From Tribonema minus (lineage: Eukaryota; Sar; Xanthophyceae; Tribonematales; Tribonemataceae), in the NCBI GenBank assembly GCA_017506865.1, contig JAFCMP010000143.1, positions 108,641 through 172,640 on the forward strand: DNA of 64,000 nt, read 5' to 3'. Positions within the stretch are counted from its first letter, which is position 1. Every line of letters starts with the position of its first letter. Under the pieces are notes generated by a model, which had not been told where the DNA came from, made no database searches, and worked only from the letters and a program-made list of their open reading frames with translations. Position numbers and translations under genes: made by a program. Below, one piece after another: positions 19,801 through 63,289 of this stretch.

Positions 19801-22800
19801 TGCGAGTGGCTGATGACCACGAGGATCTGCGCACGCAGGGGCGGGGGAGGGGGGGGGGGGGGGGATAGATCAGCGATTGGCGTGAATGGAAGAGACCTTG
19901 TTTTGTTGGCGAAAAATATGCATGTACCGCAGGTGTACAGCAAGAGATAGGGGGGGCTTTCGCGTGATATGGGTACCATTGCATCAGTATAAGTCAATGA
20001 AGTTGACAATGAAGGCTGTACACGTACTTCAAGTGTGAAGTTGGCAGTTGAAAAGAAGAGTCGCCAAGCTTCACAAGCTGCGCTGCTCAGCAGTTTTGGT
20101 CAGTCCTGCTGACCACTGCTGCAACCCCAGTTTGATGGCGTGGGTCACGACTCCGTCGCATCTCACGTCAATCAGACATTCCAATGCTGATGACCTGAGG
20201 CTGATAATCCTTGTGCTCTGAATTGATCTCTGAAGTTCTGAACAACCACAGTGGTCGTGCCAATCCCGACTGATGACCTGAGGCTGATAATCCTTGTGCT
20301 CTGAATTGATCTCTGAAGTTCTGAACAACCACAGTGGTCGTGCCAAGCCCGACTTCTGTGCATGCCTAGTGCAATCTGGCGTTGTGGTGTGAAAGGGGGT
20401 GAATTTGCAGCATACATGAAGCCCAAAGCTTTTGGATGACGATTTTACAATCTAAAAACACTTTTGAAACTGGTAATTGCACCTGGAAATACAGCAACTT
20501 TTGAAATTCGCACCTGTTGCTTTTCTCAAGAAGCTCTTCAGAAGTAAAGACTCTTTATTCCCATAAACTCATTGGCATGGGAAGTTGAGAAGTCCTGTTC
20601 CTCATACAGTGTCTGTGCAGCAGGTGTGTGATTCAGCAGTCTACTTGCGTGGGGGTTACATTGCAGCCATTCATGCTCATGATGAATGCACTGCAAATGT
20701 TGAGTTTGCTAGTATCCACAAACTGTGTTGCGCTGCTGGTTGGTACTGCTCGCCCGACTTATGAGCTACATATGACCACCACCTGTGGTATATCAGCTTT
20801 GACTCAGCATGCACATGCGTTAAAAACACATAACCTGCTTTACTTGATCCAATCGCCAGAAACCAACACGTGGCATGGCTGTATACTTCAAAATTTGTGA
20901 CAAAATGTATATTTTTGTGTGAAACAAAACACTGATACTTGTATACGTACATTCTAGTGTGTGACAGGTGTCTTGCTCTGAGTTATTTGTAATTCCTCAC
21001 AACAGACAACATGTGCCTCCATGACACATGGAGCGCCATTGAAGCACTCTAGTCTCATTTCAGGTGTATGCTGCGTCAACACCGCATGCTGCCAATCAAC
21101 ACAACTGCCACCGCTGCACAACTGCCACATAGCTCACTTAGTGCATCATCTCCATGACAGTGCATGACACTCCTCCTGGTGACAGCACAAATGCCAACTG
21201 AAACTGCACACACGACGTCGCACTTGAAAGTCACAAATTGGCATTTGCAGGTACACACCTTCTTGTAAATGGACAGGTAGTCCTGGAGCCGACAATACGA
21301 CACGTAATTGACATTTACGCGTCGGCAGTACACACTGGCAGATTGTGCACCTGCTTGTACGTGGACACGTAGTCCTCGAGCCCACAACACAACACGCAAT
21401 TGCCACTTACACACATTGGCGTCAGTTACACATCAGTCAGTTGAGCACCTTCTTGTAGTCTACGTGGACAAATAAATAATCCTCGAGCCAAAAATATGAT
21501 GCACATGATACGCAAGTGACAGTTACACCGCAGCGGTTACGCACCTTCTTGTACGTGGACAGGTAGTCCTCGAGCCACACACACGCCTCCAGGTCCAGGT
21601 GGTTCGTCGGCTCGTCGAGCAGCAGCAGCGTCGGCTGGATGAACAGCGCGCGCGACAGCGCAACGCGCATGCGCCACCCGCCGCTCATGTCCTTCGTCGC
21701 CTTGTGTATCGACTTGGAGTCGAACCCGAGGCCGATCAGAATGCGCGACGCGCGCGACTCGAACGTCGTCGGGTCCAGCCCGTCCAGCGCGTCATAGATG
21801 TCGAGCAGCGCCTCCGCCTCCGGCCCCTCCTCCGTGGTGATGTGGTCCGCAAGGCCCTCGAGGCGCGCCACCTCGCGCCGCGCCTCGTCCACGACCCACT
21901 CCAGCGCCGACAGCTCCGACGGCTGCGCCTCCTCCTTGAGCAGGTACACGTCTGTCGTCTCCGGTATCGGCTGCGCGAGGGCGCGCGCGCGGGGGGGAGA
22001 GGGAGAGTGGCGGACGTTGAGCGGCAGTTCGAGCAGTGGTGAGGAGGGGGCGGCGGTTGGTGGTGTGCGGCGGGGTGAGGGGGGGGGGGGGGGGGGGGTG
22101 CAGCGCGCGAAGCGACAGTGAGTTGGTGGCTGCGGCGCTGCCCGTCAGAAGTGTGACGCCCTTGCTAATGCTATGTGGCGCACAGGGACGTTATGATTTT
22201 CAGAAAAGAATTTGAGCATGGTTTTGGTGCGTGCAGCCTCACGTCGCGCCTCGTCTGCAATCAGCTCCAGCACCAGCGCCTCCGTGACCTGCGCTCCCAC
22301 CGCTTCAAGCAACACGAGCGGCTGGGGTGCGGCATGGGCATGCGAGCATGGACCACAGCCGCTCAAGCCGTGGCAGCCTGGAGGGGTGTTGCCTAGCCGC
22401 AACAAGACGTGCCGCGCAGTGGCGGCTCAAAAAAATTTGACATTGATGTGTGCGTACAATATTTGACGTGTTTGTGTGCATGAAACTACGGATGATTTGC
22501 CAATAATGACTGACCCTGACCACCGCCACAGGCTGCGCCGCAAGCGTAGGTACTGTAGCGTTAGGGTATGTGGAGCGGACTACCTACTTGGCAATTTGAG
22601 TCAAAATGACACATGATGCCGCTGCGCAAAACTTGTTGAGTAAGATGTACAACTAAGGGCATTGCACACGCAGAGTACAGACGGTATTGTGTCGGCTAAA
22701 CAAAAATGACGATCACATTCAAGAAGAGACGCTGTGATCTTGTAACTGCTTTCCAATAATGAATTTGTCAACTGCTTCACATAACTGCAGTAAGTCTGCC

Positions 22801-23487
22801 AGTGCCGCAGCCCCCATTCATAGAGAGCTGCATGTCTCTATCTGCTGTTTGCACTGTTTCAATACGCGTGCATTCGGCACTGTATTGACACATATTTATT
22901 CACTACACAATTGTGCATAGCCGATAGCCGAAGGCGAATGACGTATGCACCTGTGTTGCTCCAGCCATTCGAATGTCAATCCGCATGAGCCAATTGTTAT
23001 TTGAGGTCCGTCATTATGGTTGATGCTTTGAGATAACAGAGGATCTCATTAAACTGTACTGTTAACCATGCGATGTCAGACGAATGTGCTGCCGACAAGT
23101 GAAGACAGTAAGTGACAGGCAACTCACCACTTCCCGCGCCGCGATACACTGCAGCAGCGTAGACTTCCCGCAGCCATTCATCCCGATGAGCCCATAGCGC
23201 TGGCCATAGTTGAGCTCCAATATAGTGTCCTCCACAAGAGGCTTGCTGAACAAGGACAGCGAGAAGCCCTGAATTTTGATATCCCTGGCCCGCTTCTCGC
23301 TCACAAGGACGCCAGTGGCCATGCGCCCCGACTCGGAGTGATCTGCCGTCGCCCCATCTGTCCTGTCCTCCACTGTTAAGCCGTCCACACCTGCCGCCAG
23401 CTTGGAGGCCTCGGCCTCCTGTGCCTTTGCCAGGCGCTTACCTCTCAGAGGGCGCTCCTTCTTGGCATCTTTCCTAGCGGGAGGCAT
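16812..23487 (-). CDS. ABCF2/ARB1-type soluble ABC ATPase (six exons, 599 aa)
   Basis: ABCF2/ARB1 proteins are twin-ATPase factors without membrane domains, working in ribosome biogenesis and translation. Exons on the minus strand: 23487-23128, 21970-21545, 19826-19507, 19127-18731, 17768-17684, 17023-16812; phases agree at each junction and the total is exactly 600 codons. The N-terminus is Lys/Arg-rich. NBD1 has Walker A GMNGCGKST (about residues 102-110), signature MSGGW (215-219), and LLLLDEPTNHLDLEA. The linker contains SHSQDFLNGVCTN and an Arg/Lys-rich helical arm. NBD2 has GPNGAGKST (about 416-424), a YHQHSADQLDF segment, a degenerate signature LSDGLK, Walker B LLLDEPTNH and the switch SHDFRL. 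Length and block order match human ABCF2. In NBD2 the D-loop reads NHASMEMID instead of the usual NHLDxxxID. Introns carry exon-edge copies, a tandem repeat and a MITE. Confidence 0.95.
17153..17387. mobile_element. hAT-like MITE (235 bp) with 8-bp target duplication
   Basis: The element begins TAGGGTTGCCAAAACCGTA and ends TACCGTTTTGGCAACCCTA: 19-bp terminal inverted repeats with one mismatch. It is bordered by CATTTGAA at 17145-17152 and 17388-17395, a perfect 8-bp target-site duplication. Eight-base duplications and TAGGG-type termini are typical of hAT-superfamily elements. It encodes no protein and is AT-richer than its surroundings. It lies in intron 5 of the ABCF2-like gene. Confidence 0.9.
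20188..20353. repeat. Two-copy 83-bp tandem repeat in ABCF2 intron 2
   Basis: TGATGACCTGAGGCTGATAA begins a unit at 20188 and again at 20271. The two 83-bp copies are almost identical, differing near CCAATCCC versus CCAAGCCC, which points to a very recent duplication. Confidence 0.9.
21254..21490 (-). repeat. Three degenerate copies of the exon 2 3' end plus splice donor (ABCF2 intron 2)
   Basis: The true exon 2 end at 21545-21592 encodes WLEDYLSTYKK followed by a GTGCGT donor. Related segments occur in the downstream intron at about 21445-21490 (reads WLEDYL...DYKK then GT), 21345-21390 and 21254-21290 (reads LQDYLSIYKK then GT), at a period of roughly 90-100 bp. Each copy keeps a possible GT donor; none has an obvious acceptor. 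They are diverged, so several duplication rounds are likely. Confidence 0.8.
22225..22335 (-). repeat. Relic copy of the exon 2 5' part in ABCF2 intron 1
   Basis: Read on the minus strand this segment encodes LVLELIADEARREAAR, clearly related to SALEWVVDEARREVAR near the start of exon 2 (about 21930-21860). It lies about 270-370 bp upstream of the true exon 2 and is preceded by weakly similar residues. It is best explained as a decayed partial duplicate of the exon. Confidence 0.6.
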
Positions 23488-24159: not shown

Positions 24160-26592
24160 ATGGCTGTACGGTGGAGAGCACCGCTGCTGCTGTGTGCAGC
24201 GCTGCTGACTGAGGGCACATGGGCCTTCACAGCCGCGCCTTGGTCCGCACGCAGCCTTGCAGCACAACGACAAGCTGTCTCTGAGTTGAGAGCATGGCCC
24301 AAATGGCAACAGCGTGCTTTAACGGCTCCCCCAAAGGAGACGTTGCTGGAGAAGCAGCTGCTGGAAGCTCTGGAAGGCATGTCTGGCCGAGGCAAGGGCG
24401 TAGAGGGTGCGCAGAAGGAAAGGGTGGATAGTCTAATTGCCGAGCTGGAAGCTTCAGGAGGGGTACCAGATGGCGCATGTGCTGATTCGATTGATGGCGT
24501 CTGGCGGCTGTTGTATACCAGCACGCCCGGTACTGCATCTCCCATACAGCGCAGCTTCGTATCTGTGGACGCGTTCAGCATCTACCAGGTGTGTACTGCT
24601 GCGTGTGCACTGTGACATGCACTTCTGAGCATGAACATCCAGCTTGGCGATGCCAACAAGCCTCAGCAGCTGTGCTGTGATACTGGTGCAGTGTCATTGC
24701 GCCCCTATAGCGTGAGAGTGGCTTGCAATCGCCAGTTGCAGTAGAAGTAATAAAAAACTGATGCGCTGCTCCACAACAGCAATGGCTCATGAATGCTGTG
24801 ACAGTTTACGTATGTCATCAGTACTTCATGCGCCCGCTTGGATGCACAGCAGCTCAGCAGCATGCCCTGCAGTCCAACCCGCAAGCCCAACTGATGGCGT
24901 GCCCAGCTGGCAAGCACTGGCACAACGGATGGTAACCCAGCATCTGCTGGGGGTGCGTGCGCCGCACGCCGATAAAGTGGTGCCTCAATTCCAAGCATGT
25001 GCGACAAAACACATCACCACGATGGCCACAGTCGTCCACACAATCAACCGACCAACGCACGAGCGCCGTGATTCTGAGGCATGCCGCCAAGTCGCACCTC
25101 CAGACACTCACCCGACCTATGTAGGCCCACTGGTCAAGCTTCTCACATGCCATTGGGTTACGTGCCACCACCACGCGCGCGCCGCGCAGAACATTGCGCT
25201 CTACGGCGCGGACGCGCCCGCGACAGTCGCCAACGTCGTCGACTTCGGCGCGCGCGTGGGGCGCCTCGAGGTCGCCGCGCTCGCCAGCACGGCGCGCAGG
25301 CCGCTCGACGGCTTCGTCCCGCGCCGCGGCGACGGCCGCATCCTGGGCCTCAACGTCTTCGGCGTGAGCCAGACAGCGGAGGAGGGGGCGCCGCGGCGGC
25401 CGGGGGCGCGCATCGACTTCAAGTTCGACGACGCGGGCTTCGACTTGAAGTTGCTGCCCTTCCGCATCCCGTACCCCGTGCCGTTCCGGATACTCGGCGA
25501 CGAGGTGAGGGCGGAGCGGAGCGCTGCTGCGGGGTCTGAACGCTGACGCGGCGCCGTAGCGAGCGTAACGTAGAAAGTACATCATGTCAATTTGTGTGTG
25601 TCTCGTCATTCCGGGGTCTGTGTCGCTGGCAGAACGTTTTGTGTAAGGACCGCGCATGGCCCAGCGGCTGGCGTGCTGGTGAGACCGTCTGACAGCGGTG
25701 CGGTAGCTGCTCCACCGTGCGATATCTCTGTTGTTCACACAGCCCCAGGGGGGGGGGCTTGTCTGCACTGCATAATGCGGTGCTGCGTGGTTGGTGCCTT
25801 CAAATGTGTAAGGAAGCGGTGGTGTTGGTGCGATTAGAGCGACACACAGCTGCGCACTCATGGGGTTGCAGCTTGCACTTGCGCGCACCGGAGTATAGAT
25901 GACTTACCCAGCAACTGCTGTATGAGCCGCCTCATCGCTGTCACATGGTATTCACGGCTGAGTCAGTGTCGCCCCGACCCTCAGCGGCTGCGCAGGGGGC
26001 GCTGAGCACGCCTTCCTTCATTCCTAACCCTAACCCTAACCCTAACTCCTTCGTCGACTTGCATTGAAGCCGATCCACGACTCGCGATCATGGAAGTGAC
26101 TGCCGCGACGTGCCACATGCGATGTGACCCCATCAAAGCCTCGCTACCATAGAAGTGACGGCTGCCATTAGGGTTAGGCTAACTTTAAGCGCGAGCTGTG
26201 CCATGGCAGCCCTGTCCCTGTGCGCATTCACAATTGTGTTTTGGTGCACATGCGTGTGAGTTTGTGCCACGGCTGGGTCCCACACTAGCGCATCAGCATT
26301 GAGCTCTGCAGGCAGGTGCGTGGACAACACGCAGAAGGCCGTGTGGCACCGCGAGTGACCCCCTGCGCGCCTCGTATTCATTGCCACCGCAGCGCAGGAC
26401 AGAGTCACAATGTAGACCTTCGTAGCTCCGCTGACGCCAACAAACGCTTGCGTCTTGCTTGGCCCGACTCTCTGATTTCGCGCTCAGGTGAAGGGCTGGA
26501 TCGACATCACGTACCTGTCGCGGCAGCCAGAGGGCGGGCTGCGCATCGCCAGGGGCAACAAGGGCACCACCTTTGTGCTCGTGCGGGAATAG
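24160..26592 (+). CDS. Plastid lipid-associated protein (PAP/fibrillin), three exons, 282 aa
   Basis: PAP/fibrillins are plastid proteins associated with thylakoids and plastoglobules that bind or carry lipids and quinones. Exons 24160-24588, 25190-25504 and 26488-26592, all phase 0; stop TAG at 26590-26592. The start was chosen at the ATG that opens a hydrophobic signal peptide (residues about 5-21), followed directly by WAFTAAPW. A Phe at the predicted cleavage point is the hallmark of the ER-then-plastid bipartite leader of secondary red plastids. The fibrillin domain shows WRLLYTSTPGTASP, VANVVDFGARVGRLEV, a DFKFDDAGFDLKLLPF strand, IPYPVPFRILGDE, GWIDITYLS and the C-terminal RIARGNKGTTFVLVRE. 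Length and motif order match the family. Intron 2 carries a telomere-like repeat. Confidence 0.92.
26024..26046 (+). repeat. Interstitial telomere-type repeat (CCCTAA) in PAP intron 2
   Basis: Three and a half units of CCCTAA lie between PAP exons 2 and 3, oriented C-rich on the plus strand. A single TTAGGGTTAG-type echo follows at about 26168-26176. The TTAGGG telomere type is shared by many stramenopiles and animals. Confidence 0.85.
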
Positions 26593-31400: not shown

Positions 31401-34400
31401 CTGTGGAAGTACGCGGTGACGCTCCCCTCGGGCTCCCTGTCAAAACAGATATAAAACTTCAAGTATCACTTGTTGAAGTATGCAGCGGCGGCGACTCACC
31501 GTCGCGCCGCAGAGCTCATCATCATGAGCGACGCGCGCGCCTTGGCGGCGGCCGAGTTGTCGATGCTCGAGCGGCGCGACGACGACGGCGGCGCGGCATC
31601 GAGGTCCTCGCAGCAGCGCGCGCAGAAACATACTTCAACTATCACTTGTTGAAGTATCACTTGTTGAAGTACATTGTGATGACTCACCGTCGTGCCGCGG
31701 AGCTCATCATCATAAGCGACGCGCGCGCCTTGGCGGCAGCGGAATTGTCGATGCTCGAGCGGCGCGACGACGACAGCAGCGCGACCTCGAAGTCCGTTTG
31801 GCAGCACGCGCAGATACATAAACTTCAACTAACACTTGAAGTATGTGAAGGTGACTCACCGTCGCGCCGCGGAGCTCATCACCATGAGCGACGCGCGCGC
31901 CTTCGCAGCGGCCGAGTTGTCGATGCTCGAGCGCCGCGACGACAAGAGCAGCGCGGCGTCCAGGTCCTCGCGGCAGCACGCGCACCCCGCGTCGTGCCAC
32001 GCGCCCTGCACCGCGTCCGTGAAGCCGTACGCGATGGCGTTGAGGAGCCCCTGCAGGCGCACCGTGATGACCTGCGCACACGCGAGGGGGGGAGGGGGGG
32101 GCGGGGCAGGCGTCAGCGCTCAGAGCAAGACGTGTAGCCTACTTTCTGGTACAGTGTAAGTTATACCTGTGCTGCTGGGCAACGGCACTGCGTCGTACTA
32201 TTGGGCACTGATGCGCTCCACTGTACTGTACCATGAGGTGAAGGCAGCGCTCAGGCAGCGACGTCACCGCAGCTTGCTGGCTCTCTGCGTCATTGGTGCT
32301 TTGTCTCGCGCTCATCAGATGCGAGCCATGAAGGCATGCTGTACAAGATGCCGGAAGGCCCATCCGACCGCGAGGCGCTGAGGGGTGCTCCTGCACATGC
32401 TGCTGAGCCACGCAGCACGTGCGGACGCACGCGCAATGAGGCGCGAGCGAGCGCGCGGCTGCGCAATATGTTTGCACCGCCCGACTTGCTGCTGATGCTA
32501 GTGGTGTTGACATGGCACCCTGTAATTGATGCATGTGTCTAGCTGGGTACGACATAGCAACTGCGGCAGGACGCGACGGCAGGCCGACCGTGAGAGATGC
32601 GCACGCCGCGCTGCGAAGTCCATGCATTATATGTACCTGGGTCAGCAGCAGCGGGTAGATGGGGTTGTCGGGGTCGATGATGTTCTGTATCCGGTTGATG
32701 CCTGCGTGCAGGGGGGGGGGGGGGGGGGGGGCAGAGGCGAGCGCGCAGGGGCGTGTCAGCCGCTTTACACTTGAAGGTGAAGTTTACAGGGACGGCGGGC
32801 TTTCCACTGCGTGCTGATACTGCATGCGCGCAGCGGCGCCGTGTCACATGGCAGCATGTACACCGCAGCAGCACCGCAGCCTGAGCTTTGGCACTGCTCT
32901 GCTCCGCTGCTGCGACCCGCCCCCCTGCACGACCCCCTCCTCCCCCCTTACTCTCCGAAACACCCTGCTCCCTCCCCCCCCCCCCCCCCCCCCCCCCCGC
33001 CCCATTCTCCGACATTCGCCCCCAATTCTCCGGCATTCGCCCTAACACCCTGCTCTCCATTCTCCGAGACAGGCCCAGAATACCCTACTCACCCCCCTGC
33101 CCTCCCCCCTTCGCCGCGAGCCCTGCCCACACCCGCGCCCCGCAGTCCGTCACGGTGACGGTGACCCCCCTGCCAGTGCCGCAGTGCCAGTGGGGGCTGG
33201 TCTCACAACAGGAGTCCAACTGAGTAACTGCACGCATGCACGAGCGCGTACGAGCGCGCACGAGCGCGTATATGCACTCACTCGGCGTCGTCCAGCAGAA
33301 GATGAGGATCGCGGGGTACATGGCGAGGGAGCGCAGGAAGCGCCGCACGCGCGCCTGGCGCCGCCGCACGGAGCTCCCCTGCTGCGCGCCCGCCGCCTCC
33401 ATGCGCGCGACCATCTGGTGCACGCGCCGGTACACCTGGACGTACGCGACGATCTCGCCCGCGATGATGAGCCAGAGGATCCCGTAGAACGCGCCGTAGC
33501 GCCACCCCACCTGGTCGACGCTGCGCGGGGGCGGGGGCGGGGGGGGAGGAGGGTTGGGGGAGGGGGGTCAAGGGGGGCGGGGGGGGGGCTGATGGTGAGA
33601 CGGCGCTTTGCAGGCGGGGGTCAGGGTGTGTGTGTTTGTGGGGGGGGGCTGATGGGGAGACCGTGCTTGTATAGGCATAGGGGTTACAGTTACAGCGGTG
33701 AGGGGGAGAGGGGCTAGAGATCATACTTGTGAAGCACTTGGGCGGCAGACCGTGCTGAAAGCTACAGCTTGTGCCACAGTGCTCAATCACTGGTAATGGA
33801 CAGAGAGTTCCGCTGCGGCATGCTGCGGTACGTCATGACTGCCGTTCATCTGTCAACGGGCACTTGCACGTAGCTGCCACCGGCGACAGGCCGCACGCCT
33901 CGCATTGGCACAGCTGCATTGTGCTCTTTATTGATTCTTGCTCAGGGCGCGAAAAGAACGCCCGCAATGTACTACTCCTGCCGTATCGACTGGGGCGCAG
34001 ACGAATGACAGCCGCGAAGACCAGGCCGGCCAAGACAAGAGGCCCGCCTGGCAGTCCCCTGCTGGTGTGAGAACGCTGAGCACTGCTGAGCGCTGCTGCC
34101 GCCGCTCAGTATATGCAAACCCCGAAACCACCCCCCCCCCAGGATCCTTCCATCTTACATGGTAGCCTTGCCTCGCAGCCTTGCCTTGCTGCGGAGGCTG
34201 CGCGCACGCCAGCACCTCTACTCCACCGTCAACCAAACGCAGACTTGAGCACTGACGTGATATGCACGCCTACTGTGAAGCGGTTCCCACGCTCGAGCAG
34301 CCACGCGTCCGCGCACGGCCTGCGCTGCACGCAGGTACCTTGGCGCTAGCGCGAGTGTTGCGGCGGACAGCGCGCCGCCGCGTCATGCTCCCTGCTACCA

Positions 34401-37205
34401 ACACGCGCCTCGCTGCCGTGGGGCACAAAAGCAGGGCGCGGCGCAGGAGGCCTCTCGCCGCCCACGGTCGCTCCACGCCGCAGTCACAGTGGCACCGCGT
34501 ACCAGCAGGCTCATGGACGTCGCACCGCCGCTTGCGGCAGGCCCGGCGGGCATGCAACGAGTCGCCAACGACCCTACTCTGACGCTGCGCGCGCGCAGTG
34601 CCGTCGTCTCCGCGCCTCTCGCGTGCCGCGCCAGCGCTCCGCCCCAGACTACAGTAACGGTCGCGCAAGGCAGCAGCGCACGGCCGGCGGCGCCTGACCG
34701 CAGGTGCCGCGTCGGCAGCCGTCGCCTGCTCCAGACGCGCGAACACCCCCCCCCCGGCTTGGCGTAACAGTCAGCCGGCTGGTGCTACTTGTCTCCTCAA
34801 CTCTCTCCTTGCGACTTGCACGCTGCGCGACGACTGAGATGCTGCGGCGCGAGAGCCGCTCGGGCGGGCACGCGCGCGCGACTCCCGCCCGGCGCCCTGT
34901 GCGCTCTCTCGTTCGTGTGCATACGCGGCGGGCGTATGAGATGCTTACTGGTGGAGGGCATCCAAATTCACGGCTAGCCGCACCTTGTCGCCCAGAGCTC
35001 TACGGTCTTTTGATTCGTTTCCATGAGACGGGCACTCACATGCTCCAGCACCGCGACCCCGTGCTCCCGTACGCGCGCGGACACCGCGGCCTAGTGTAGC
35101 AGGCAGCCGGCCGCCGCTACTTCGCTCCCCACTCTCTCCTGGCAACTCACACGAGCCCCGCGCGCGAAGACTGAGGCGCGGCGGCGCGTGAACCGCTCAG
35201 ACCGGCGCGCGCGCGCGGCTCGCAGCGCCCCGTGCGACCTCATTCGTGCGCATACGCAGCGAGGGAGTGGTGATAGCACTCACGGCGCCAGAGCCTCTCC
35301 GGCGACCACGCGCGCGCGGCTCCCGGCAGGCGCCCTGTGTGAATCTCTCGTTCATGTGCATATGCGGCGGACGCATGAGACTAACCACACCTGTCACCCA
35401 GAGCTCTACGGGCTGTTGATTCGTTTCCATGAGACTGTGTAGCACTCACGTGATCCAGCACCACGACCCCGTGCTCCCGTACGCGTCCGTCGTCAGCGGC
35501 AGCAGCATCAGCGTCCCCGCCACCCCCCACACGTAGCAGTGGTAGATGATCAGCATCCGCTTCTGCTCCGCCGGCTCCGTGACCTTCTCGTGCACCGCCA
35601 CGCTGCGAGGGGGGTGGGGGGGGGGGTAAATGCATGCAATCGAGGGGGAGGGGGGGGGGGGGTAAGTGCATGCAATTGAGGCCGCAGCGCATGGGTCAGC
35701 AGGCGACCGTATGCCGCAGTCTGCAATATGGCAGCAGCTGCTGGCAACCAATGCCGATGAACTGGAAAGCCCGCCCATCTTCACTTCTTGAAGTTGAAGT
35801 GTGATGACACAGGCGTGCCAGCCCCTGACGAACTCGCTGAATGCTGTGTGTCTGAGAATCTGCATCGAAGCGATGATCACACTTACGCCTCGACCATGAT
35901 AACATCGTTGCGACCCTGAGCCTCACCCTGAGCGGGCGTGCACCTGCTGTGTGTGTACGCCATGCTAACCGCAACCCTCACCCTAGCCTAACCTTAGTTG
36001 TATGCGCACCTGAGCAGCGTGTACGCCATGCACGACGTCCACAGCATGACCGACAGCTGACAGAAGTTCTGCATCATCGCCTGCAAGCACAGAGAGAGAG
36101 AGAGAGAGGGCGGGCGCAAGAGGAGGGATCAGGGCGCCGCGCCGCACGCCTGCTGTCGTCAGCGTCGAGCTCTGCTGTAGGTCTGTGCTGCAAGCTGAGC
36201 ATCAGCGGCAAGGCTATCGCGCGATGAGGTCGCTGGCGACTGCAGCAGCAGCGGCGGCGGCGGCAGCAGCGCCGCGCGCAATGCAGCAGCGGCGACCTCT
36301 GACATGGCCCGCAGCGCAGTCGTGCGCGTGCAGAGATCTCCTGCTGCGCAAAAGGGGATGGGCGCAAGAGCGCTGTCCTCGTACCAGATGCAGGCATTGG
36401 TCGCCGTCTCTCGCATCGTGGCCCAGTATCTGTATCACACGCACGGCATGCCTGAGAAGAGGCGTACCTACAGTAGCCTGAGGATGAAGGAGGTTGTGAG
36501 GGGCAGAAGTTTGGCACTGCTGCATACTCCAGTGTACCTCTTGTCATGTCGGTTTCAAGTTGCGGCAAGCGATCATGTGCCTGGAAATTAGTGTCGCGCG
36601 TACCTGCACCATGCACAGGGGGGATCCGTCCTCCGGATTGCCCATCCAGTAGGTGATGTCTGATCCAATGTCTGCAGACGAGGCAGACAATGGCGTCTGC
36701 TGAGTGAGCGCGATCTCTGCAACATGCTGTAGGTGCTGTGAGGGACAGTGCAGCTGGATGCCACACACAGCAAACGGCGATGTCGTCGGTAGCACGCGGT
36801 GTGCACAATGGAAATTTACACATCTGAGTCCAATAGCTTAGCTCGAGCTCTGTGCTGATGCTGCCCTTCTGACCATTTCTACGAGACGCCGCCCAAAATG
36901 GGCTGTGATCCCAACGTCATGCATGGAGCTGACCACATATACTCCTTGCACTAAGGACACTGCTTGACCGGCGTCAACAACAACACCATGCTCTTACCTG
37001 CGATGGCCATCATGAGGACCAGGTGGAACGAAAATGTCCGCAGCCTGGCGAACAGCACGTAGCTCAGAACCACGGAGCTGCTGCCGACAAAGCTGATGGA
37101 GGCACACAGCTTCGCCATGAGCACCAGGATGTCATTTTGCTGTGTGGTGAAAGCCACAGCACGGCCGACGCAGCAGAGCAACAGCACCCATAAGAGTGGT
37201 TGCAT
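28410..37205 (-). CDS. Seven-transmembrane receptor of the slime-mould cAMP-receptor-like class (nine exons, 492 aa)
   Basis: This is a G-protein-coupled receptor at the cell surface with unknown ligand; class E (Dictyostelium cAR-like) membership is inferred. Exons: 37205-36998, 36671-36604, 36080-36010, 35602-35450, 33520-33282, 32701-32637, 32071-31860, 29943-29803, 28731-28410; phases match throughout. There is a signal peptide (MQPLLWVLLLCCVGRAVAF), TM1 (LVLMAKLCASISFVGSSSVV), an ARLRTFSFHLVLMMAIAD TM2 start, first loop DITYWMGNPEDGSPLC with the conserved Cys, TM3 in exon 3, TM4 in exon 4 ending GSTGSWCWIT, TM5 and TM6 in exon 5 (WLIIAGEIVAYVQVY; MYPAILIFCWTTP), then SINRIQNIIDP and TM7 (LQGLLNAIAYGF). 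The cytoplasmic tail has RRSS-type phosphorylatable clusters. Exons 8 and 9 are less certain than 1-7. Several introns hold copies of exon ends. Confidence 0.85.
30933..31815 (-). repeat. Tandem copies of GPCR exon 7 3' end with splice donor
   Basis: True exon 7 ends at 31860 (SSRRSSIDNSAAAKARASLM, then SSAARR and GTGAGT). Close copies of about 130 bp lie in the downstream intron at 31686-31815 and 31496-31626, and a shorter decayed one at about 30933-30985 (with a trace near 31200). The two close copies keep the SSRRSSIDNSAAAKAR coding string and a donor-like GTGAGT. They are separated by AT-richer linkers containing repeated ACTTGTTGAAGT. No copy has a full exon. Confidence 0.88.
34874..35376. 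repeat. Imperfect tandem duplication including the GPCR exon 4 3' end
   Basis: Segments near 34874-35090 recur at about 35308-35500, with a third partial copy around 35200-35265. The right end covers the true exon 4 terminus (35450 onward, minus-strand GSTGSWCWIT). The copy at 35034-35090 reads the same CACGACCCCGTGCTCCCGTA-type sequence next to a donor-like CTCAC on the plus strand. The unit period is about 410 bp. Confidence 0.75.
34979..35030 (+). repeat. Dispersed coding-like repeat, copy 1 (CRPELYGLLIRFH)
   Basis: The plus-strand reading gives CRPELYGLLIRFHET. Relatives occur at 35390-35436, 47398-47440 and 50285-50325. This copy is in an intron of the minus-strand GPCR gene. Confidence 0.7.
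35390..35436 (+). repeat. Dispersed coding-like repeat, copy 2 (CHPELYGLLIRFH)
   Basis: It shares CCCAGAGCTCTACGG and TTGATTCGTTTCCATGAGAC with copy 1, from which it probably arose by the local tandem duplication. Confidence 0.7.
35936..35966 (-). repeat. Copy of the GPCR exon 3 3' end in intron 3
   Basis: The minus-strand sequence reads SMAYTHSR before GTGCAC, a close relative of the exon 3 end CMAYTLLR before GTGCGC (36010-36030). It is directly adjacent to a degenerate run of CCCTAA-like units at about 35964-35995. Confidence 0.6.
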
Positions 37206-40009: not shown

Positions 40010-40049
<40 letters not shown>

Positions 40050-43000: not shown

Positions 43001-46000
43001 CAGTGCGCTCAGTGCTCGGCCGCGCGGGCCCGACGCTGCTCCCGCTTGCCGCTCATACGAACATGAGAACATTGCCCATGAACCATTGTCCATGAATGGC
43101 GTCTAGCAGTCACAAGCGCTGCGCAGTTGCGTCGGCCGCCGCTGCCTCACCTCAATGTTGGAGCAGGTCGAGCCGAGGCGGCTGCGCGCCTCAGTCGGCG
43201 TCATCTCCTCGATCGTCATCAGGGATGGCCTCTGCGACGCGGCAGCAGCGGCGGCGGAAGCGCAGCGCGCGCGGCATGTGAGCGACGCCGTGGAGACGGG
43301 GCACGTGGCGGCAGCACGCGGCGCATCCGCGCGCCAGCCGTAAGCGGTGGTGCGGCAGACGACAGCAGCGCTGCGCGAAGCAGCGGTGATGCGGCGTGCC
43401 GCGCAGCAGTGCACTGATGCGAAGGATCACAACAACAGTAGTGCATGAGACTCTGGCTCTGCGATCGCCGATGCAGCTGTGCGGCAGCAGCGATAAAAGC
43501 CGCGCAGCAGTGCTGAGGCGTGCTGCGCAGCGGCGTTGAGCCGCCAAGCAGCCGCAAAGTTAACTCCTCGTAACAGATGGGCGTGCAGCGTGGCGAGCCG
43601 CGCTGGCAATGCTCAGCCAAGCGGCAGCGGTCAGTCACACAGTGGCGGCCGGCCTTGCAGCAGTGATCAGCGCAGCGCCGCCGAGCCGCTCGCGAGTTTG
43701 AAGAGCATGAGGGCAGCGCGCGGCGTGTGCGGCTGAGTGCGTGCGGCTGAACGCGTGCTGCGGGCGCGGAGGCTGCAGCATTGCGCCCCCAATGCGGTGC
43801 GACGCCGACCCACACGACGACCAATGGATCAGACTCTCACGAGAAAAACTGTCAGCTCCGGCACATGACGTTTCACATCAAATTTGACCGCTGCGCGTGC
43901 GCCACTCTGCGCATTCGCACCGCCACCACCGTCGTAGCGAGCTCAACTCGATCGCGCCGCGCCGCGCGCCGCGCCGCGCGATGAAGCCCCAGGAGCTGCT
44001 GCCCTGACTGCCACTCTATGCGTCAACGCCGACATCGACGTAGTGCCTGAGCTGCTCTCGTACCGCAGACGAAGCGCACCTGCAGCGCGTGACCGAGATC
44101 CGGCGGATACATCTCCACGCCCCCGCCCGCCGCGACGCCGACGCCCCCCGGCCCCCCCAGCATGCGCCCCATGCCTCCCCCCCCGCTGCTGAGCAGCGCC
44201 ATCGCCGCCTCCCCTCCACCGGCGGCCCGAGCTGCACCTCCATGTTGTCCTCGTCGTCCGCGCGCTCCGCGAGGAAGGGGTGCTGCAGCAGCGCCGCGGC
44301 GCTGGGGCGGCGGCGCGGGTCGAAGTCGAGGCACTCGCGCACGAAGTCGACGGCGGTGCGCAGCTGCACGCGCAGGAGCGCCGCCGGCAGGATGCCCGCC
44401 GTGACGCGCTTGTAGATCTGCGGCGGCGGGGATGTTGGGGGGGTAAGGGGGTGTGGGGGGGGGGTGGGTCAACGGCCGCAGCATTCTGACCTAATTCCAA
44501 AGCTTTTAAGAACCAAGGTGCTGCTCTGAAGGATTGCGAGGAGCATCGATGCGTGGCCGCATTGTCCGCAAATAAATGCAGCACCCAGTCTATCCGCTTG
44601 CCACATGGGAAACTGCTGAAGTCGAAGTTGAATTAGCGTGGCTGAGCTACCCCCGACCCCACGCGGCGACCGTTCAAACGGACCCGAAACGCACCATGCC
44701 ATCACTATTGGAGGGAGGGCTTCTGTACCTGTGCCGCATTGGTGCACTCGCTGTAGGGGCGATCCTTGGTGACCATCTCCAGCATGCACATGCCAAAAGC
44801 ATAGATGTCCACCTGACACAAGAGCAGGGGGGGGGAGAGGGGCACAAAACGGGGGCGGGGGGAGAGACGAGGCGTGAGTCATGCTCTGAAGGTAGGGTTC
44901 GCGCCGCCGCATCACAACGTGTACACTCAACAGATCCAGCGTCTCAACAGCATATGCGTCAAAACGCAGCTCTGCTTTCAAGTTGGCGCTGACACTTCCG
45001 ACTGCGGGTGTGCCGCTGCAGCATCGCAACACCAGGCTGCCACTTCAACTGTGACCTACTGCAAGATGAAGTACCCCCCCCCCCCCCCCCCCCCCCCCGC
45101 CCGACCCGCACCCGCGCACCGGGTGTGCACTTCAACTGTAACTACCTCAAGTTGAAGTACCCCCTCCCCCTTGTGTGCCCACCTTCTTGGTGTAGGACTC
45201 GTCGTACAGCTCCGGCGCCACGAACTCGGGCGTGTGCCGAGGACGCTCATTCCATTACATGACATGCACATACGCAATAGATGCATACCGTACCTATATA
45301 AATGCGCGATACATACCTTCTCGTTGTACGACTCGTCGTACAGCTCCGGCGCCATGAACTCGGGCGTGCCGAGGACGCTCATGTTCTTGTCCGTGCGCGC
45401 GGAGCTCGTGCTGAGGCCGAGGTCGCCGATGCGGATGTCGCCCGTGTGCCCGTTGATAAAGATGTTGTCGCACCTAGAAGGGCGGCGTGAGAGTGAGTGG
45501 CGTGAGTGACGTGGGACCAGGCCTTGTGACATGTGCGTACTGTTGGAATATGGGCTTGTACTGTGTCTAGCCTATGGTACTACGGTTTTAATCGCAGTGC
45601 CAGTTACAGCGGTTACGTAACCGCCGCAACACTGCTTGTTCGTTGGTAACAGCACGCACTTGTGTTGTCGGGCAGCACGGACATCTTGGCTTTATGCTGT
45701 TCCTCCCAAAGGACACTTAAGAAGGTAACTTGAGGCGTACTTGCAGTACTCGATTTACCTTGAAGGCTCTGGCAGTTTCAAATGCACATAGGTGATGGTA
45801 CCCAGGAGTGACATCCTCATCGTTACGACCCACAGCACCCTGTGTTGAAGCCATTACCAGCACCGCCATCGCCCAGTGGCACGCGATCTTGCTCCCCTCT
45901 TACATCAATGCTGCGTCATTATGTACTTCATCTTGACACTTATCCACAGTCACGACGAGTACGCATACTGTTGTCACACTTCAAGTTCCTTACTTCAAGT

Positions 46001-48308: not shown

Positions 48309-48392
<84 letters not shown>

Positions 48393-58200: not shown

Positions 58201-61200
58201 GAGGGCGCGCAGACGGCGTACACGGTCGCGCTGACGGGGCAGCCGAGCACGAACGTCGTGGTGACGCTGCGCGTGTCCGACGCGGCGCTCCTCGCCGTCT
58301 TCCCGCTCGCGCTGACGTTCACGCCGGCGGCGTGGGCGGCGCCGCAGACGGTGAGCGTCGCCGCCGTGGACGACGGCGTCGCGGCGGCGACCAGCAGCTA
58401 CGGCGCGACCATCGCGCACGCCGCCGCGTCCGCCGACGCCGCCTTCGACGGCGCGGCCTTCGCGCCCGCCGCCGCCGTCGCCGTCACCATCTACGACAAC
58501 GACGCGGGCTGCTACCGCTCTTGTCCTGCGGGCTCGCACTCCGCGACGTGCGCCGGCGCGCTGCTGTGCACGCCGTGCGCGCCCGGGTACTGGTGCGCCG
58601 GCGGCTGCGCGTCGCCGGCCGCGTGCGCCGCGGGAACGTTCCGGACCGATCCCGGCGCGGCGGCGGCCGCAGACTGCGCCGCGTGCGCCGCCGGGTCCTA
58701 CTCGGCGGCGGCGGGCGCGGCGACGTGCGCCCTGTGCCCCGCTGGGTACAAGTGCGCAAGCAGCGCGGCGGCGCCGGCGGCGTGCCCCGTGGGGACGTAC
58801 AGCGGCGCGGGCGCCACGGCGTGCTCGACGTGCCCCGACGGGTACTACGCGGCAGGTGACAGTGATCGCGCTGTCGCAGTGCATGGCAGGCTTAGGGTGA
58901 TTGTTGGGTGTATTTAAAGATGCACGGTAGTGACGGCTGGCGTGCGGCGCCTGCCGCTTGCGGGTCTTGCGATGCGTCGTCGCATCCGTCTCGATGATTT
59001 CATGTGCCTCGTCCATTGTGCAGAAGAGTTGTTGACGGTGCATACAGGGCGGCCAGCTGGCCAAGTAGGCAGGAAGGTACGTACAAGCGTCAGTCAGATT
59101 CTTTGCACTTCCATTGCAGCTGAAGGACAGGCCTGATCAGTCCATGCACTCGTCACTTCTTACTCACCCCCCTGTGCCACAGGCTCATAAATGCAGCACG
59201 CGACGCCGGGGAACCGAGACGTGCCTGCTGCGCACATTCGTCGCATACTTTCAAGTGCACAACTGCAGCCTTACAACGCTCGAGCTCATTGCGCACCGTC
59301 TCATCCCCCTCCCCCCCCCCCCCCTTCTCTGCGGCGTCCGCTTGTGCGCGCAGCGGAGGGGCAGACCGCCTGCACCGAGTGCCCCGCAGGACACATGTGC
59401 GCTAACAAGTCGGCAGCGCCGGCGGCGTGCGCGCCGGGCACGTACGCCACCGCGGGCGCCCTCGCGTGCACCGACTGCCCGCAGGGCTACTACTGCAGCA
59501 GCACGGGCGACGCGCCGCAGGTGAGGGCCCCTTGCAGAAGAAGGGGGGGGGGGGGGGGGCGTTGCAGTGGGTACATGTGCGTTGATGCGGAAGGGGTTGA
59601 GTGTGGGGTTTTGCTGCAGCGGCAGGGACGATGTGCTGCAGGTGAAGCGCGGGGGGGGGGGGGGGGGGGGGGTTGCAGTGAGTGGATGCATACGGATGCA
59701 GGGGCTTACACTCACGAGCGCGCTCATTCGGTGGCGGGAGTATGAGAGCACATGGTGATAGCGTGCAGTACGCGTGGAGAGGTGCTCACAGTTAAATGTG
59801 TCATCTCTGTGCGTCCTTCTCCAGTGTGTACTTCGCAGCTCACATGTACGCACACAACTGTGGTAGCATACTCAGCAGCCCTGCGGACCCGGTGCAGGGT
59901 CATGGGCGTTTGAGCACAGGTGTATGGGTCGGTGCCGTGGCTTGTGCAACCGTGACCGATACGGAAGGACAGCGTGAAGAGCTGTTGAGCACTGCCGTGG
60001 TTTGTATGCAGGCCTGCTCTCAATTCAGCTACTTTCATAACAATACATGTTAGTATGCATGTTAGCATGGGCTTAATCAAGAAGGCACACTTCTGGTATG
60101 TGTGTCCCCCTGGCTCAAAGAATCCCCCCAGTCCCTGGCCCGCTTGTAGAAGCGCTGGTGGCGGAAGTCATGAGCCGCCATGCATGTCACAGACAGCCGA
60201 GATGCAGCGGTGGGGCGTCTCGCCTCCTCTTCGCACCAGGCGCAATGTCATTGAACCCCGGTGATGATACGCATGTATGCATGTCGTTTCGTTGCGAGCC
60301 GGCGGAAAAGGTGCCAGGCCTGAGCACTGCTGGCTGCCTCTGACCAGCATACGCTTCATCGCCTCCGTTGCCCTTGCTGCCGCCCTGCAGCTGTGCCCAG
60401 CGGGCACGTATTCTCTGCCCAACGGCGCCTACTGGTGAGCTGGCATCTTCCGGTGCCGCTACATCACTGATGGTAGAGAATGACTGCATCAAGGTCCCGA
60501 AAACCCATGCAGTTGTGCGTTTTGAGCCCACCAACGGAGCAGCTGATCGAGAGCTGCGCGGTCCGCCCCCCTGCAAAGGACGTCCACGAATGCGTGCGCC
60601 AACATGTTGATATTCAGCGTCCTTGAGTAACGATAGGCTTATTGATCTATGCGACGTGCTTCCGTGACTCCTAGCCCTGACCCTGACTTTTGCATGGCAG
60701 CTTTCTACACTGCGGTTCGCACGGTCTGTTGCTTGATATAACCTCCGGGTCTAAAGCATGACTGGCTCTGCCTATTCCCCACTCAACGAGGCAGGGCTTC
60801 ACATACACCTGCATTGCTTCTCTCCCCCCCCCCCCTCCCCCCTCCCCTCTCGCAGCATCTCCTGCCCCCCCGGCTACTTCTGCCTGAACGCCGCCGGCAC
60901 CCCCGAGAAGTGCCCCGTAGGCTACGCGAGCGTGGGCGGCTCGGCCGCGTGCGTGCAGTGCGCCGTGGGCGCGTATGCGGACGTCGCAGGCGCCGTCACG
61001 TGCACCGTCTGCCCTTCCGGGCGCACGTGCCTGGACCCGACGCTGTCGCCCGGTGAGGCACTGGGCAATGCAGTTTTCCCCCCCTGTAATGGTGTGTTTG
61101 CAGCTGCTTTGCCAGCAGCCAAGCCCCCCAACCACACATTGGCCATGACGTAGTGCATGTCGCGCTAAAAGTAAACTGACCCCCCCCCCCCTGCTGTCCA

Positions 61201-63289
61201 TCGCATGCCCCCCCCCGCCCCCCCGCCCCCCCCCCCCCCCCCCCAATCGCCCCAAGTGCTGTGCCCCGCAGGACACGCCTGCGCGACCGCCGCGCAGCCG
61301 GACGGCACGTACGCAATCGAGGTGGCGTGCGCCGCGGGCACTTACGCCGTGGCTGGACAGGTGAGTCGCATGACGAGCCCACCCCTAACCCTACGTGTAG
61401 CGTCAGGTCTGCTGTTGCGTGATTGAGCACTGCTGCTGCTGCTGCTGATCAAGGCGGCGTGAGCCGCGGGTGCGTACACCCTGGCTGGGCAGGTAGCTTG
61501 TTGCGTAATTACAGTTGTGTGTACTGCAAGCGGTGACGTGCCGCAGTGTGAGTGAGCGCTGCCGCGGCAGTCTTGGCATGTAGGTACGCGCGTCGCGGGC
61601 ACGTACGTCGTGGCTGGCCAGATAGGTCGCAAAACGCATAGCGCAAGCGGTGCACCAGCTTAGGAGTGTTGCGTGATTGCGCATTGCTGCGGCGATCTTT
61701 CTGGCAGTTTCTGTGTGTGAGAGCGCATGTTGCGTGCTCTGATGGCGCCCCCCGCTGCGCGACGCGGCGCCTGAGCAGTGCTGCGGCCAAGCAGGGGGCA
61801 TGCAGTGCGGACGCGCACAGCTGCGCCACTATCGCATGACGTAGTTTTCGGAGTGTGAGCGGAGATATTCTTTGAGCGGTTGTCGCTCCTGATGTACCAT
61901 TTGGTACAGGTTGCGCACCGGAGTGACACCACCTGCTAACGTTAACCCCATGTGCCCACGCACCTGCACAGATGTACATGTTATCTTCTATATCAAGTGT
62001 CTGTTCAGTGCTTGCTACTTGCAGACACCTCCAAGTGCCTGCCGTATGCGCTCCATCGGTCGTCGCGCCGTCGAGCACGTGCGACGCCTTCCGCAGCAGC
62101 GCTTCAAAGCAGCAGCACCGCGTCAAGCAGAAGCTTAGCCTAGCCACTGGCACAGGATGCGCGCTGACCGTAGACGCGCTGCGTAGGCATGCAGTGTGCG
62201 AGTCAGCATGAGACCTGTGTGCCAAACTCAAGCTGCTGCTCACAACGGGGGTGCTGTTGTCTCGCTCTTCGTGTGCACGCAGACGTCGTGCTCGCCCTGC
62301 CCGGCGGGCTACGCGTGTACGGTGCAGGGCGTCAACACCGCGTGCACCCCAGGTACCGCTGTTGCAGCGCTGCAGTCGCACCAGCCTGCTTGCTGAGCGC
62401 TGCAACGAGCTTGTGTGTGCATCACCATTGTCAAATTTGGAGGCTGCGGCCCGGTGTCTATTGCGCTGCTGCCGTTCATGGCATCGTGAGCTTCTCTCAT
62501 CTCACTTCGTTGCCGTCGTTGTGGTCCAATCGATGTCCCCAGCGCGCCTCGATTGACGCCATTGCGGCATATTCCGCAGGTTGCAGCAGATGCGGCGGGT
62601 ATACGCGGCGGATCCTTGTCACAGCGACCATTGCCCCCCTGAGTGACACGAAGGGGTTCAGTGTGCTGGGTATGGACGCGCACGCTGCGGCTTGAAGCCG
62701 CTGCTCTGCAGCGCTCGCGCTTCTGCGCACCGGCATCTGCTTGAGCACTGTCATGAGGTTGTGACCCTCTGTCACCGTAGTGCATCGCAGCGTCCACGTG
62801 CGGCATCGTGAGGCAGGCACAGACGCGAAGCACCACACAAGCGCTCCGCGGCAGCATCCTCGCTCTCTGTCGTGAACCGCATGCCGCCGTTTGGTGCACG
62901 TCCCGTGCTTCGCATTGCCACGCCAGGCGCGTTCAGCGACGGCCTGCATCACATTTTTCTTGGGTCGAGCACTGCCATCGATGTAGCGTCATTCCGACAT
63001 GCGCGCTGCATCACCACGACTATCAATGGCACCGCACGATAGCACACGCCGTGGCACTGTCGCTTGCTCCTGAACTGCGTCGTGTCGCTTTCTGCGCCTC
63101 GCCTCGCGCTCTGCGTTAAACCGCTTCGTGTCGACCTGTGCGCCTCACATCACGCGCGCGCCAGGCACGTACAGCGGCGGCCTGCAGACGGAGTGCACCA
63201 TCTGTCCGGCGGGCTACCGCTGCACGTCCACGACCGCCGTCAACAACCCCGTCGCGTGCGTCGCCGGCACCTACGCGCTGGCGGGGCAG
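49230..63289 (+). CDS. Giant secreted/surface repeat protein, at least 2603 aa, 3' end outside window
   Basis: Proposed exons: 49230-49338, 49581-50146, 52429-58855, 59354-59520, 60391-60434, 60856-61052, 61257-61360, 62283-62352, 63165-63289; phases agree at all junctions and no stop is reached. Exon 1 encodes a signal peptide (VLVLCAFLWLLATPGYA). Exons 2-3 encode Ala-rich beta-sandwich-like modules, with markers such as LPADGRVVVAFP, ANPAVSGAT and NNAWASG. In exon 3 they form four super-repeats of about 280 residues (starts near 53581, 54430, 55273 and 56113). Then come two Calx-beta-like modules (near 57810-58500, ending YDNDDN and IYDND), then Cys-rich ephrin-receptor/GCC2_GCC3-like repeats (CPAGYKC, CPAGHMC, CPPGYFC, CPAGYAC, CPAGYRC). 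A membrane anchor is expected beyond the window. The role is probably cell-surface adhesion or cell-wall structure; this is inference. Confidence 0.85.
50157..50177 (+). repeat. Interstitial telomere-type repeat just inside intron 2 of the giant gene
   Basis: Three CCCTAA units begin 11 bases after the exon 2 donor (50147). They have the same orientation relative to transcription as the repeat in the PAP intron. Confidence 0.85.
50285..50325 (+). repeat. Dispersed coding-like repeat, copy 4 (AYDLLIRFHYW)
   Basis: It shares TACGATCTTTTGATTCGTTTCCAT with the other copies. It lies in intron 2 of the giant surface-protein gene, in sense orientation with that gene. Confidence 0.65.
51800..51985. 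repeat. Two-copy tandem repeat with ACTTCAAGTACTTGA core (giant gene intron 2)
   Basis: The strings CTACTTCAAGTACTTGAGGT at about 51800 and CTACTTCAAGTACTTGAAGT at about 51901 start related segments of about 100 bp (both continue through CGCCAGTTT/TGCCAGTTT and CAACTGTC/CCACTGTC). The core is itself palindromic. Confidence 0.7.
59604..59650 (+). repeat. Copy of the giant-gene exon 4 3' end with donor
   Basis: TGCTGCAGCGGCAGGGACGA...CTGCAG followed by GTGAAG resembles the true exon end at 59485-59520 (TACTGCAGCAGCACGGGCGA...CCGCAG followed by GTGAGG). It lies about 120 bp downstream, in the next intron, and both are followed by a G run. Confidence 0.65.
61448..61630 (+). repeat. Two copies of the giant-gene exon 7 3' end
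   Basis: The true exon 7 (61257-61360) ends with the string encoding GTYAVAGQ, then GTGAGT. A copy at about 61450-61491 encodes AYTLAGQ, then GTAGCT. A second at about 61575-61613 encodes GTYVVAGQ, then ATAGGT, which has lost the donor GT. The period is about 125 bp. Confidence 0.82.

What the first reader, a model, noticed from the sequence alone, without database searches (positions are those of the whole stretch)
21254..61630. Exon edges, usually with their splice donor, are repeatedly copied into the adjacent intron
Seven exon 3' ends in four genes (ABCF2 exon 2; GPCR exons 3, 4 and 7; WNK exon 3; giant gene exons 4 and 7) have one to four partial copies immediately downstream, at periods of about 75-410 bp, each ending at or near a GT donor. 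Two exon 5' parts (ABCF2 exon 2, WNK exon 8) have copies upstream. Copies are diverged to different degrees, so the process is ongoing. The bias to exon borders suggests either a duplication mechanism focused there (for example repair of breaks at R-loops or transcription pause sites) or selection for extra donors. Either would be a notable route of intron growth and a source of new splice choices. I know of no described system with this pattern.
Basis: partly seen in the sequence, partly recalled or inferred. Interest (0 to 1): 0.88.

Follow-up and report, generated by a model that had tools for sequence, protein, structure and literature searches.

The report
Introns built from exon-edge copies
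In this genome, probably an alga's, the last stretch of many coding exons, together with its splice site, has been duplicated repeatedly into the neighbouring intron, so introns appear to grow from their own edges, and in one gene such a copy seems to have become the coding end again.

Summary
The core observation is real and not confined to the window. In the window five exon 3' ends have copies downstream (9 copies); two other claimed 3' ends and the two claimed 5' cases were not supported. Elsewhere, of exons picked only by Pfam hits (ABC, kinesin), 13 of 29 donors and 13 of 27 acceptors have edge copies in the adjacent 800 bp; with window and added exons, 20 of 42 and 14 of 41. Controls: mid-exon 0 of 39 downstream, 250 bp inside the intron 2 of 40, reverse complement 0 of 42, shuffles 0.

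Best reading: repeated tandem duplication straddling the exon/intron junction, with copies drifting freely afterwards. Copies differ at all codon positions, their donors decay at about the neutral rate and distances ignore frame, so selection for extra donors is not supported. In one ABC paralog the coding exon end is 55/56 identical to an intronic copy in its sister gene (46/56 to the sister's exon) and carries that copy's downstream intron. Single boundary-crossing duplications are in print; multi-copy arrays at nearly half of tested exon edges were not found in nine searches. Why junctions are favoured is open.

The parts
21545..21970 (-). ABCF2-like exon 2; its 3' end (at 21545) is the source edge
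   Evidence: Exon model; ABCF relatives of the joined peptide, best 78% identity
21449..21490 (-). Copy of ABCF2 exon 2 end, followed by GTGCTC
   Evidence: 30/33 aligned bases; sequence
21351..21397 (-). Copy of ABCF2 exon 2 end, followed by GTGCAC
   Evidence: 40/42
21259..21299 (-). Copy of ABCF2 exon 2 end, followed by GTGTGT
   Evidence: 36/40
31860..32071 (-). GPCR-like exon whose 3' end is copied
   Evidence: Exon model; joined peptide matches Dicty_CAR over residues 11-153, which lie mostly in the upstream exons
31688..31737 (-). Copy of that exon end, followed by GTGAGT
   Evidence: 45/50; 188-bp tandem array
31500..31549 (-). Copy of that exon end, followed by GTGAGT
   Evidence: 46/50
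35450..35602 (-). GPCR-like exon whose 3' end is copied
   Evidence: Exon model; Dicty_CAR E 2.8e-08 for the joined peptide
35041..35075 (-). Copy of that exon end, one base short of the edge
   Evidence: 33/35
45317..45473 (-).
   Evidence: Exon model; Pkinase E 4.3e-41 for the joined peptide
45183..45232 (-). Copy of the kinase exon end, followed by GTGGGC; the sequence after it does not resemble the true intron start
   Evidence: 46/50; flank score 0.2, simulation p 0.003
61272..61360 (+). Giant-gene exon whose 3' end is copied
   Evidence: Exon model (low score 9.2); cysteine-rich protein
61448..61492 (+). Copy of the giant-gene exon end, followed by GTAGCT
   Evidence: 36/45
61582..61621 (+). 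Copy of the giant-gene exon end, followed by ATAGGT
   Evidence: 34/40

Best explanation
Short tandem duplications (period roughly 75-400 bp) that straddle an exon/intron junction happen repeatedly in this genome. Each copies the exon edge, the splice site and the adjoining part of the intron. The extra unit falls inside the intron, so the protein is unchanged as long as splicing uses the exon-adjacent site. Copies then drift without detectable constraint. Repeated rounds give arrays of degenerate exon edges at one or both ends of an intron, so introns lengthen from their edges. The array can also contract or recombine, so that an intronic copy becomes the coding exon end. Shown: the arrays, their position bias, their local origin for the two edges searched genome-wide, decay of copies and copy donors at about the neutral rate, and one paralog pair in which copy and exon end have swapped role. 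Inferred: tandem duplication as the event (most but not all flanks fit), use of the exon-adjacent site through exon definition, and contraction as the direction of the swap.
For: Direct, local, not inverted: 168 direct against 11 inverted local pairs, 0 shuffled. Both edges: exons picked only by Pfam hits 13 of 29 donors and 13 of 27 acceptors; all tested 20 of 42 and 14 of 41; mid-exon 0 of 39 down, 1 of 38 up. Only the near edge is copied: exon 5' edge into the downstream intron 1 of 114, exon 3' edge into the upstream intron 0 of 117. Spacers after exon and copy are usually related too: 52 of 62 pairs fit a neutral tandem unit in a simulation with generous settings. Copies drift: codon-position differences 79/945, 59/956, 163/958; donors GT in 41 of 48; frames 16/18/14. 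Local: a search with the kinesin array found the edge nowhere else, one with the ABCF2 array found only ABCF-type exon edges. Exchange: L029 exon end 55/56 to L031's intronic copy, 46/56 to L031's exon, and its next 130 intron bases 121/130 to the sequence after that copy. Further arrays: L044, L046 and L047.
Against: Ten of 62 pairs (5 at p<=0.01) have flanks too different for a plain tandem unit of that age, among them the window kinase copy. In copy-copy comparisons the exon-like side is much more alike than the spacer side (mean score 30.75 against 9.05 of 60, 20 pairs), though these were picked by their exon-like side. Donor copies nearer the exon are not reliably younger (8 of 15 arrays), as steady outward growth would predict; acceptors fit better (7 of 8). 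Exon boundaries are predictions without RNA. The role swap rests on one gene pair.
Confidence: 0.72

Rival explanations
1. No focus on junctions: tandem duplications arise evenly, those inside exons are purged, and those touching an exon stay recognisable about twice as long because the exon side hardly changes.
For: Copies look neutral; most flanks fit neutral decay; repeat coverage at donors is only about twice that at 400-800 nt.
Against: The first 50 nt of the intron, unconstrained apart from the donor, have copies more often than a segment 250 nt in: 12/40 against 2/40 (p=0.006) and 19/108 against 6/92 (p=0.02); before acceptors 20/112 against 6/91 (p=0.02), but 13/41 against 6/40 is not significant (p=0.11).
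Confidence: 0.25
2. Junctions are mutational hot spots: GC-skewed DNA at intron ends forms R-loops or other structures, breaks, and is repaired with duplication.
For: GC skew +0.154 in the first 50 nt after donors and -0.276 in the last 50 nt before acceptors, fading over 200-300 nt; donors with copies are more skewed (0.236 against 0.119, p=0.036).
Against: Acceptors with and without copies do not differ in skew (p=0.70); introns with copies are AT-richer, not GC-richer (donor side 0.485 against 0.611, acceptor side 0.561 against 0.651). Skew could be a result of copying.
Confidence: 0.25
3. Gene conversion or re-copying from the exon keeps the exon-like parts fresh while spacers diverge.
For: L044 copies 66/66 and 64/66 identical to the exon end with flanks of only 73-78% aligned identity; copy-copy asymmetry; copy/exon swap in L029/L031.
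Against: Most pairs do not need it (52 of 62). The L044 copy with no related flank (64/66) has an interspersed repeat about 34 nt beyond its donor.
Confidence: 0.2
4. Selection keeps extra donors or edge copies for splicing or regulation.
For: Copy donors that still have GT score almost like true donors (5.16, n=38, against 5.76, n=30; other intron GT -0.85, n=300).
Against: GT retention 41 of 48 is the neutral expectation and differences fall on all codon positions; frames are not preserved.
Confidence: 0.06
5. Introner-like elements inserting at exon ends with long target-site duplications.
For: Introners can take splice sites from their target (PMC9860276, passages); a few copies lack related flanks.
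Against: Spacers are gene-specific: the ABCF2 array found no spacer matches elsewhere, the kinesin array only a stretch of about 65 bases. Usually spacers within an array resemble each other.
Confidence: 0.04
6. Assembly artefact.
For: Tandem repeats are error-prone in assembly.
Against: Most copies differ from the exon by several per cent to 30% and each carries its own changes; arrays occur on many contigs.
Confidence: 0.02

Closest known systems
Tandem duplication crossing an intron-exon boundary, potato RdRp gene (PMC4974935; abstract and outline seen)
   Same: A tandem duplication that spans an intron/exon border and carries splice signals with it.
   Different: One case, one extra copy, and it created a new intron; here many genes, up to six copies, at both ends of existing introns.
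Intron gain by duplication of coding sequence with a proto-splice site (Drosophila, PMC2891723; abstract and outline seen)
   Same: Exonic sequence is duplicated and one copy ends up intronic.
   Different: There the duplicated exonic segment makes the intron; here an existing splice site is duplicated with its exon edge.
Introners (PMC9860276; passages seen; noted for Pelagomonas in PMC9481584, passages)
   Same: Changes intron content on a genome scale in algae.
   Different: A dispersed transposable family; here copies are local and gene-specific.
Direct repeats near intron borders (PMC11782384; abstract and passages seen)
   Same: Direct repeats at exon/intron borders.
   Different: Pairs of 4-30 bp, read as insertion scars; here edges of about 25-90 nt in multi-copy arrays on one side of the intron.
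Minisatellite-type tandem arrays (general knowledge)
   Same: Tandem units that expand, contract and diverge.
   Different: One unit of each array is a coding exon end under selection.

Membership tests
Boundary-crossing tandem duplication | Direct local copies that include exon edge and splice site | tested here: met
Boundary-crossing tandem duplication | Homology continues past the splice site into the intron | tested here: inconclusive
   52 of 62 pairs compatible, 10 not
Intron gain by AGGT exon-segment duplication | A new intron formed between two copies of one exonic segment | not tested
   Needs relatives lacking the intron; none in reach. Far-edge copies, which I would expect near a young intron of that origin, are rare: exon 5' edge into the downstream intron 1 of 114, exon 3' edge into the upstream intron 0 of 117, but that is not a test of it
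Introner elements | Dispersed family of similar inserts in many genes | tested here: not met
   Two arrays searched genome-wide: no dispersed spacer family apart from one stretch of about 65 bases
Functional alternative donors | Copy sites conserved beyond neutral expectation or frame-preserving | tested here: not met
Functional alternative donors | Transcripts that use the copy sites | not testable with these tools
   No RNA reads in reach

The most novel reading that the evidence does not exclude
In this lineage introns are mainly built outward from their own edges by junction-spanning duplication. The intronic edge copies form a self-renewing reservoir that exchanges with the coding exon: exon ends seed copies and copies periodically replace exon ends, so exon edges evolve as one member of a tandem array, tolerated because exon-definition splicing ignores the inner copies.
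Probability: 0.35. Interest if true: 0.86.

Novelty: new variant of a known kind. Interest (0 to 1): 0.72.

Why it matters
Intron growth is usually put down to transposons and diffuse insertions (general knowledge). A genome in which nearly half of the tested conserved exon edges have seeded tandem copies of themselves would give introns a second, self-templated source of length. It is also a natural experiment in splice-site choice: several near-identical donors with real exonic context lie within a few hundred bases and only the exon-adjacent one preserves the protein, which points to exon definition. And it offers a way for intronic sequence to re-enter the coding end of an exon.

Tried and rejected
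Selection on copies: rejected by codon positions, GT retention and frame; one search includes two rows from a false antisense exon (31513-31603,+). Strong decoupling of exon-like and spacer parts: my first impression, weakened by the simulation and kept only as a rival. Steady outward growth with age order: not shown for donors (8 of 15), suggestive for acceptors (7 of 8, which dropped L010 and alignments with more than two gaps). The scan used longer probes without a shuffle cut-off and includes chance alignments; not used for prevalence. The exon models give some antisense and low-complexity false exons, which dilute the rates. Four exons had no matching model and dropped out (window 23100-23480, L033, L038, L040). 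An Rfam search of L044, L046 and L047 found nothing at E 0.1. The organism was not identified: a stramenopile-like alga is my guess from the protein hits and a recalled plastid-targeting motif.
Full report
WHAT WAS CHECKED. The window is G000:C143:108641-172640 of a 158 Mb assembly in 554 contigs. A self-comparison shows many local direct repeats. I built a small exon model, a self-trained codon and splice-site HMM. Its donors read mostly AG|GTGAGT or GTGCGT, its acceptors are C-rich and end in CAG. Its ABCF2-like exon 2 starts and ends where the sequence suggests. Pfam supports the GPCR-like (Dicty_CAR), kinase (Pkinase), cysteine-rich (Ephrin_rec_like), kinesin and ABC assignments.

IN THE WINDOW. 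Five exon 3' ends have clear copies in the downstream intron, nine copies in all, seven meeting the exon edge exactly and followed by GT. One further claimed end is weak, one was not found, and one repeat pair of the giant gene is coding against coding. The two claimed 5' cases were not found or lie in GC-triplet sequence that I do not count.

BEYOND THE WINDOW. I sampled 19 stretches of 10 kb at preset places (20 asked, one contig too short), loci around 22 ABC-domain matches and three kinesin genes picked for having many exons in a short span. In 317 kb there are 168 direct local repeat pairs of 45 bits or more, 11 local inverted pairs and none in shuffled sequence. Repeat coverage is about 8-9% deeper inside exons, about 20% from 40 nt before to 150 nt after donors, and 8-10% at 400-800 nt; around acceptors it is nearly flat at 9-14%. 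With 50-nt probes, exon 3' edges have downstream copies at 22 of 114 predicted donors and exon 5' edges have upstream copies at 12 of 117 acceptors; mid-exon probes 2 of 101 and 1 of 101; reverse complements 0 of 114; shuffles 0 in all probe classes but one (1 of 91, a deep-intron class).

EXONS WITH HOMOLOGY. In one search, 20 of 42 donors (35 copies) and 14 of 41 acceptors (27 copies) have edge copies, against 0 of 39 and 1 of 38 mid-exon probes and 0 in shuffles. Part of that set was chosen with knowledge of the case: nine window donors (3 with copies; one of these exons, 25190-25504, was included on a recalled resemblance) and four 148-nt ABC exons added after copies had been seen (4 of 4). 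The rest, picked only by Pfam match, gives 13 of 29 donors (ABC 8 of 16, kinesin 5 of 13) and 13 of 27 acceptors (ABC 5 of 15, kinesin 8 of 12) (recount). Window acceptors gave 0 of 10. Some of these exons are related to each other, so they are not fully independent.

EXAMPLES. In kinesin L044 the exon ending at 3174 has copies 66/66 and 64/66 identical to its end plus an older one, the exon starting at 1687 has five copies of its start, and exon 4849-5022 has copies at both ends. A genome search with the ABCF2 array hit two paralogous places, one of them as three matches within 285 bp. Reading them showed six copies of ..PHALLLDEPTNHLDLES| in L046, and in L047 three copies of ..WLDDYLQ|GTA by alignment and a fourth by eye. 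The three ABCF genes have the intron at different positions, each with copies of its own edge. L046 was fetched after its spaced hits were seen; L047 had a single hit.

HOW COPIES EVOLVE. Exon-copy differences by codon position are 79/945, 59/956 and 163/958, as expected if the copy drifts freely and the exon changes mainly at silent sites. Of 48 copies whose donor could be judged (two of 50 could not), 41 have GT and 3 GC. Distances fall 16/18/14 over the frames. Neither selection for donors nor coding use is supported. Flank divergence fits a neutral tandem unit for 52 of 62 pairs under generous settings (upper bound of exon-like divergence, 0.25 indels per substitution; pairs at least 85% identical over at least 25 nt with at most two gaps); ten do not at p<=0.05, five of them at p<=0.01.

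EXCHANGE WITH THE EXON. Related ABC genes share a 148-nt exon. In L030 and L031 it is followed by a spacer (73/89 alike) and a copy ending at the same distance, 145 nt. L029, closest to L031 by summed similarity, lacks that unit. Its last 56 exon bases match L031's intronic copy at 55/56 and L031's exon at 46/56; the ten differences from L031's exon are all silent. Its following 130 intron bases match the sequence after L031's copy at 121/130. The simplest reading is that the array contracted in L029 and an intronic copy became the coding end; exchange between paralogs is also possible.

WHY JUNCTIONS. Constraint on the exon lengthens the time a copy stays recognisable and could explain part of the excess. 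But the first 50 nt of the intron also have copies more often than a segment 250 nt in: 12/40 against 2/40 and 19/108 against 6/92; before acceptors 20/112 against 6/91, while 13/41 against 6/40 is not significant. Whether this reflects fragile, GC-skewed junction DNA, renewal from the exon, or growth from the edges is open. Introns with copies are AT-richer, which may partly mark false exons among those without.

WHY TOLERATED (inference). On both sides the unit used must be the one contiguous with the exon. That is what exon definition gives; intron definition would favour the inner copies.

NOVELTY. Single boundary-crossing duplications (PMC4974935) and duplications with proto-splice sites (PMC2891723) are in print (abstracts). 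Introners (PMC9860276, passages) and short border repeats (PMC11782384, abstract and passages) differ in kind. Nine searches of the held library listed no report of multi-copy exon-edge arrays as a general feature of a genome; that is not proof of absence. I rate it a new variant of a known kind, with high interest for its scale and for the exon/intron exchange.

Noticed in passing
L044:2839-2904 (spacer after the first kinesin edge copy): A stretch of about 65 bases with 42 other matches in the genome list (81-93% identity; only 40 of 789 candidates scored): an interspersed repeat. No Rfam match at E 0.1 in L044.
   Followed up: partly
Donor-side introns of the sampled loci (59,328 bases): The 8-mer TTGAAGTT occurs 45 times on the sense strand and 8 times antisense; a possible intronic splicing signal or repeat remnant.
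   Followed up: partly
Intron ends of the sampled loci: Introns start G-skewed (+0.154 over 50 nt) and end C-skewed (-0.276), fading over 200-300 nt; 42 of 151 acceptors have a run of six or more C in the last 50 nt.
   Followed up: partly
window 4681-6938, 9294-11572, 14270-16068: Three tandem segments of about 1.8-2.3 kb, 76-78% identical, possibly a tandem gene array.
   Followed up: no
window 52429-58855: A single open predicted exon of 6.4 kb made largely of direct repeats spaced about 850 bp.
   Followed up: no
window 20187-20354: A nearly perfect 83-bp tandem duplication (98%) inside the ABCF2 intron, away from any exon: duplications also arise in mid-intron.
   Followed up: no
window 34972-35024, 35372-35430, 47383-47435: A short repeat shared between introns of two different genes (81-85% identity).
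   Followed up: no
window 503-3263: Predicted exons that resemble a tRNA-lysidine synthase (recalled resemblance, not tested).
   Followed up: no
window 31446-31984: The 188-bp array of the GPCR last exon is also scored as coding on the opposite strand (31513-31603,+), a trap for gene finders.
   Followed up: partly
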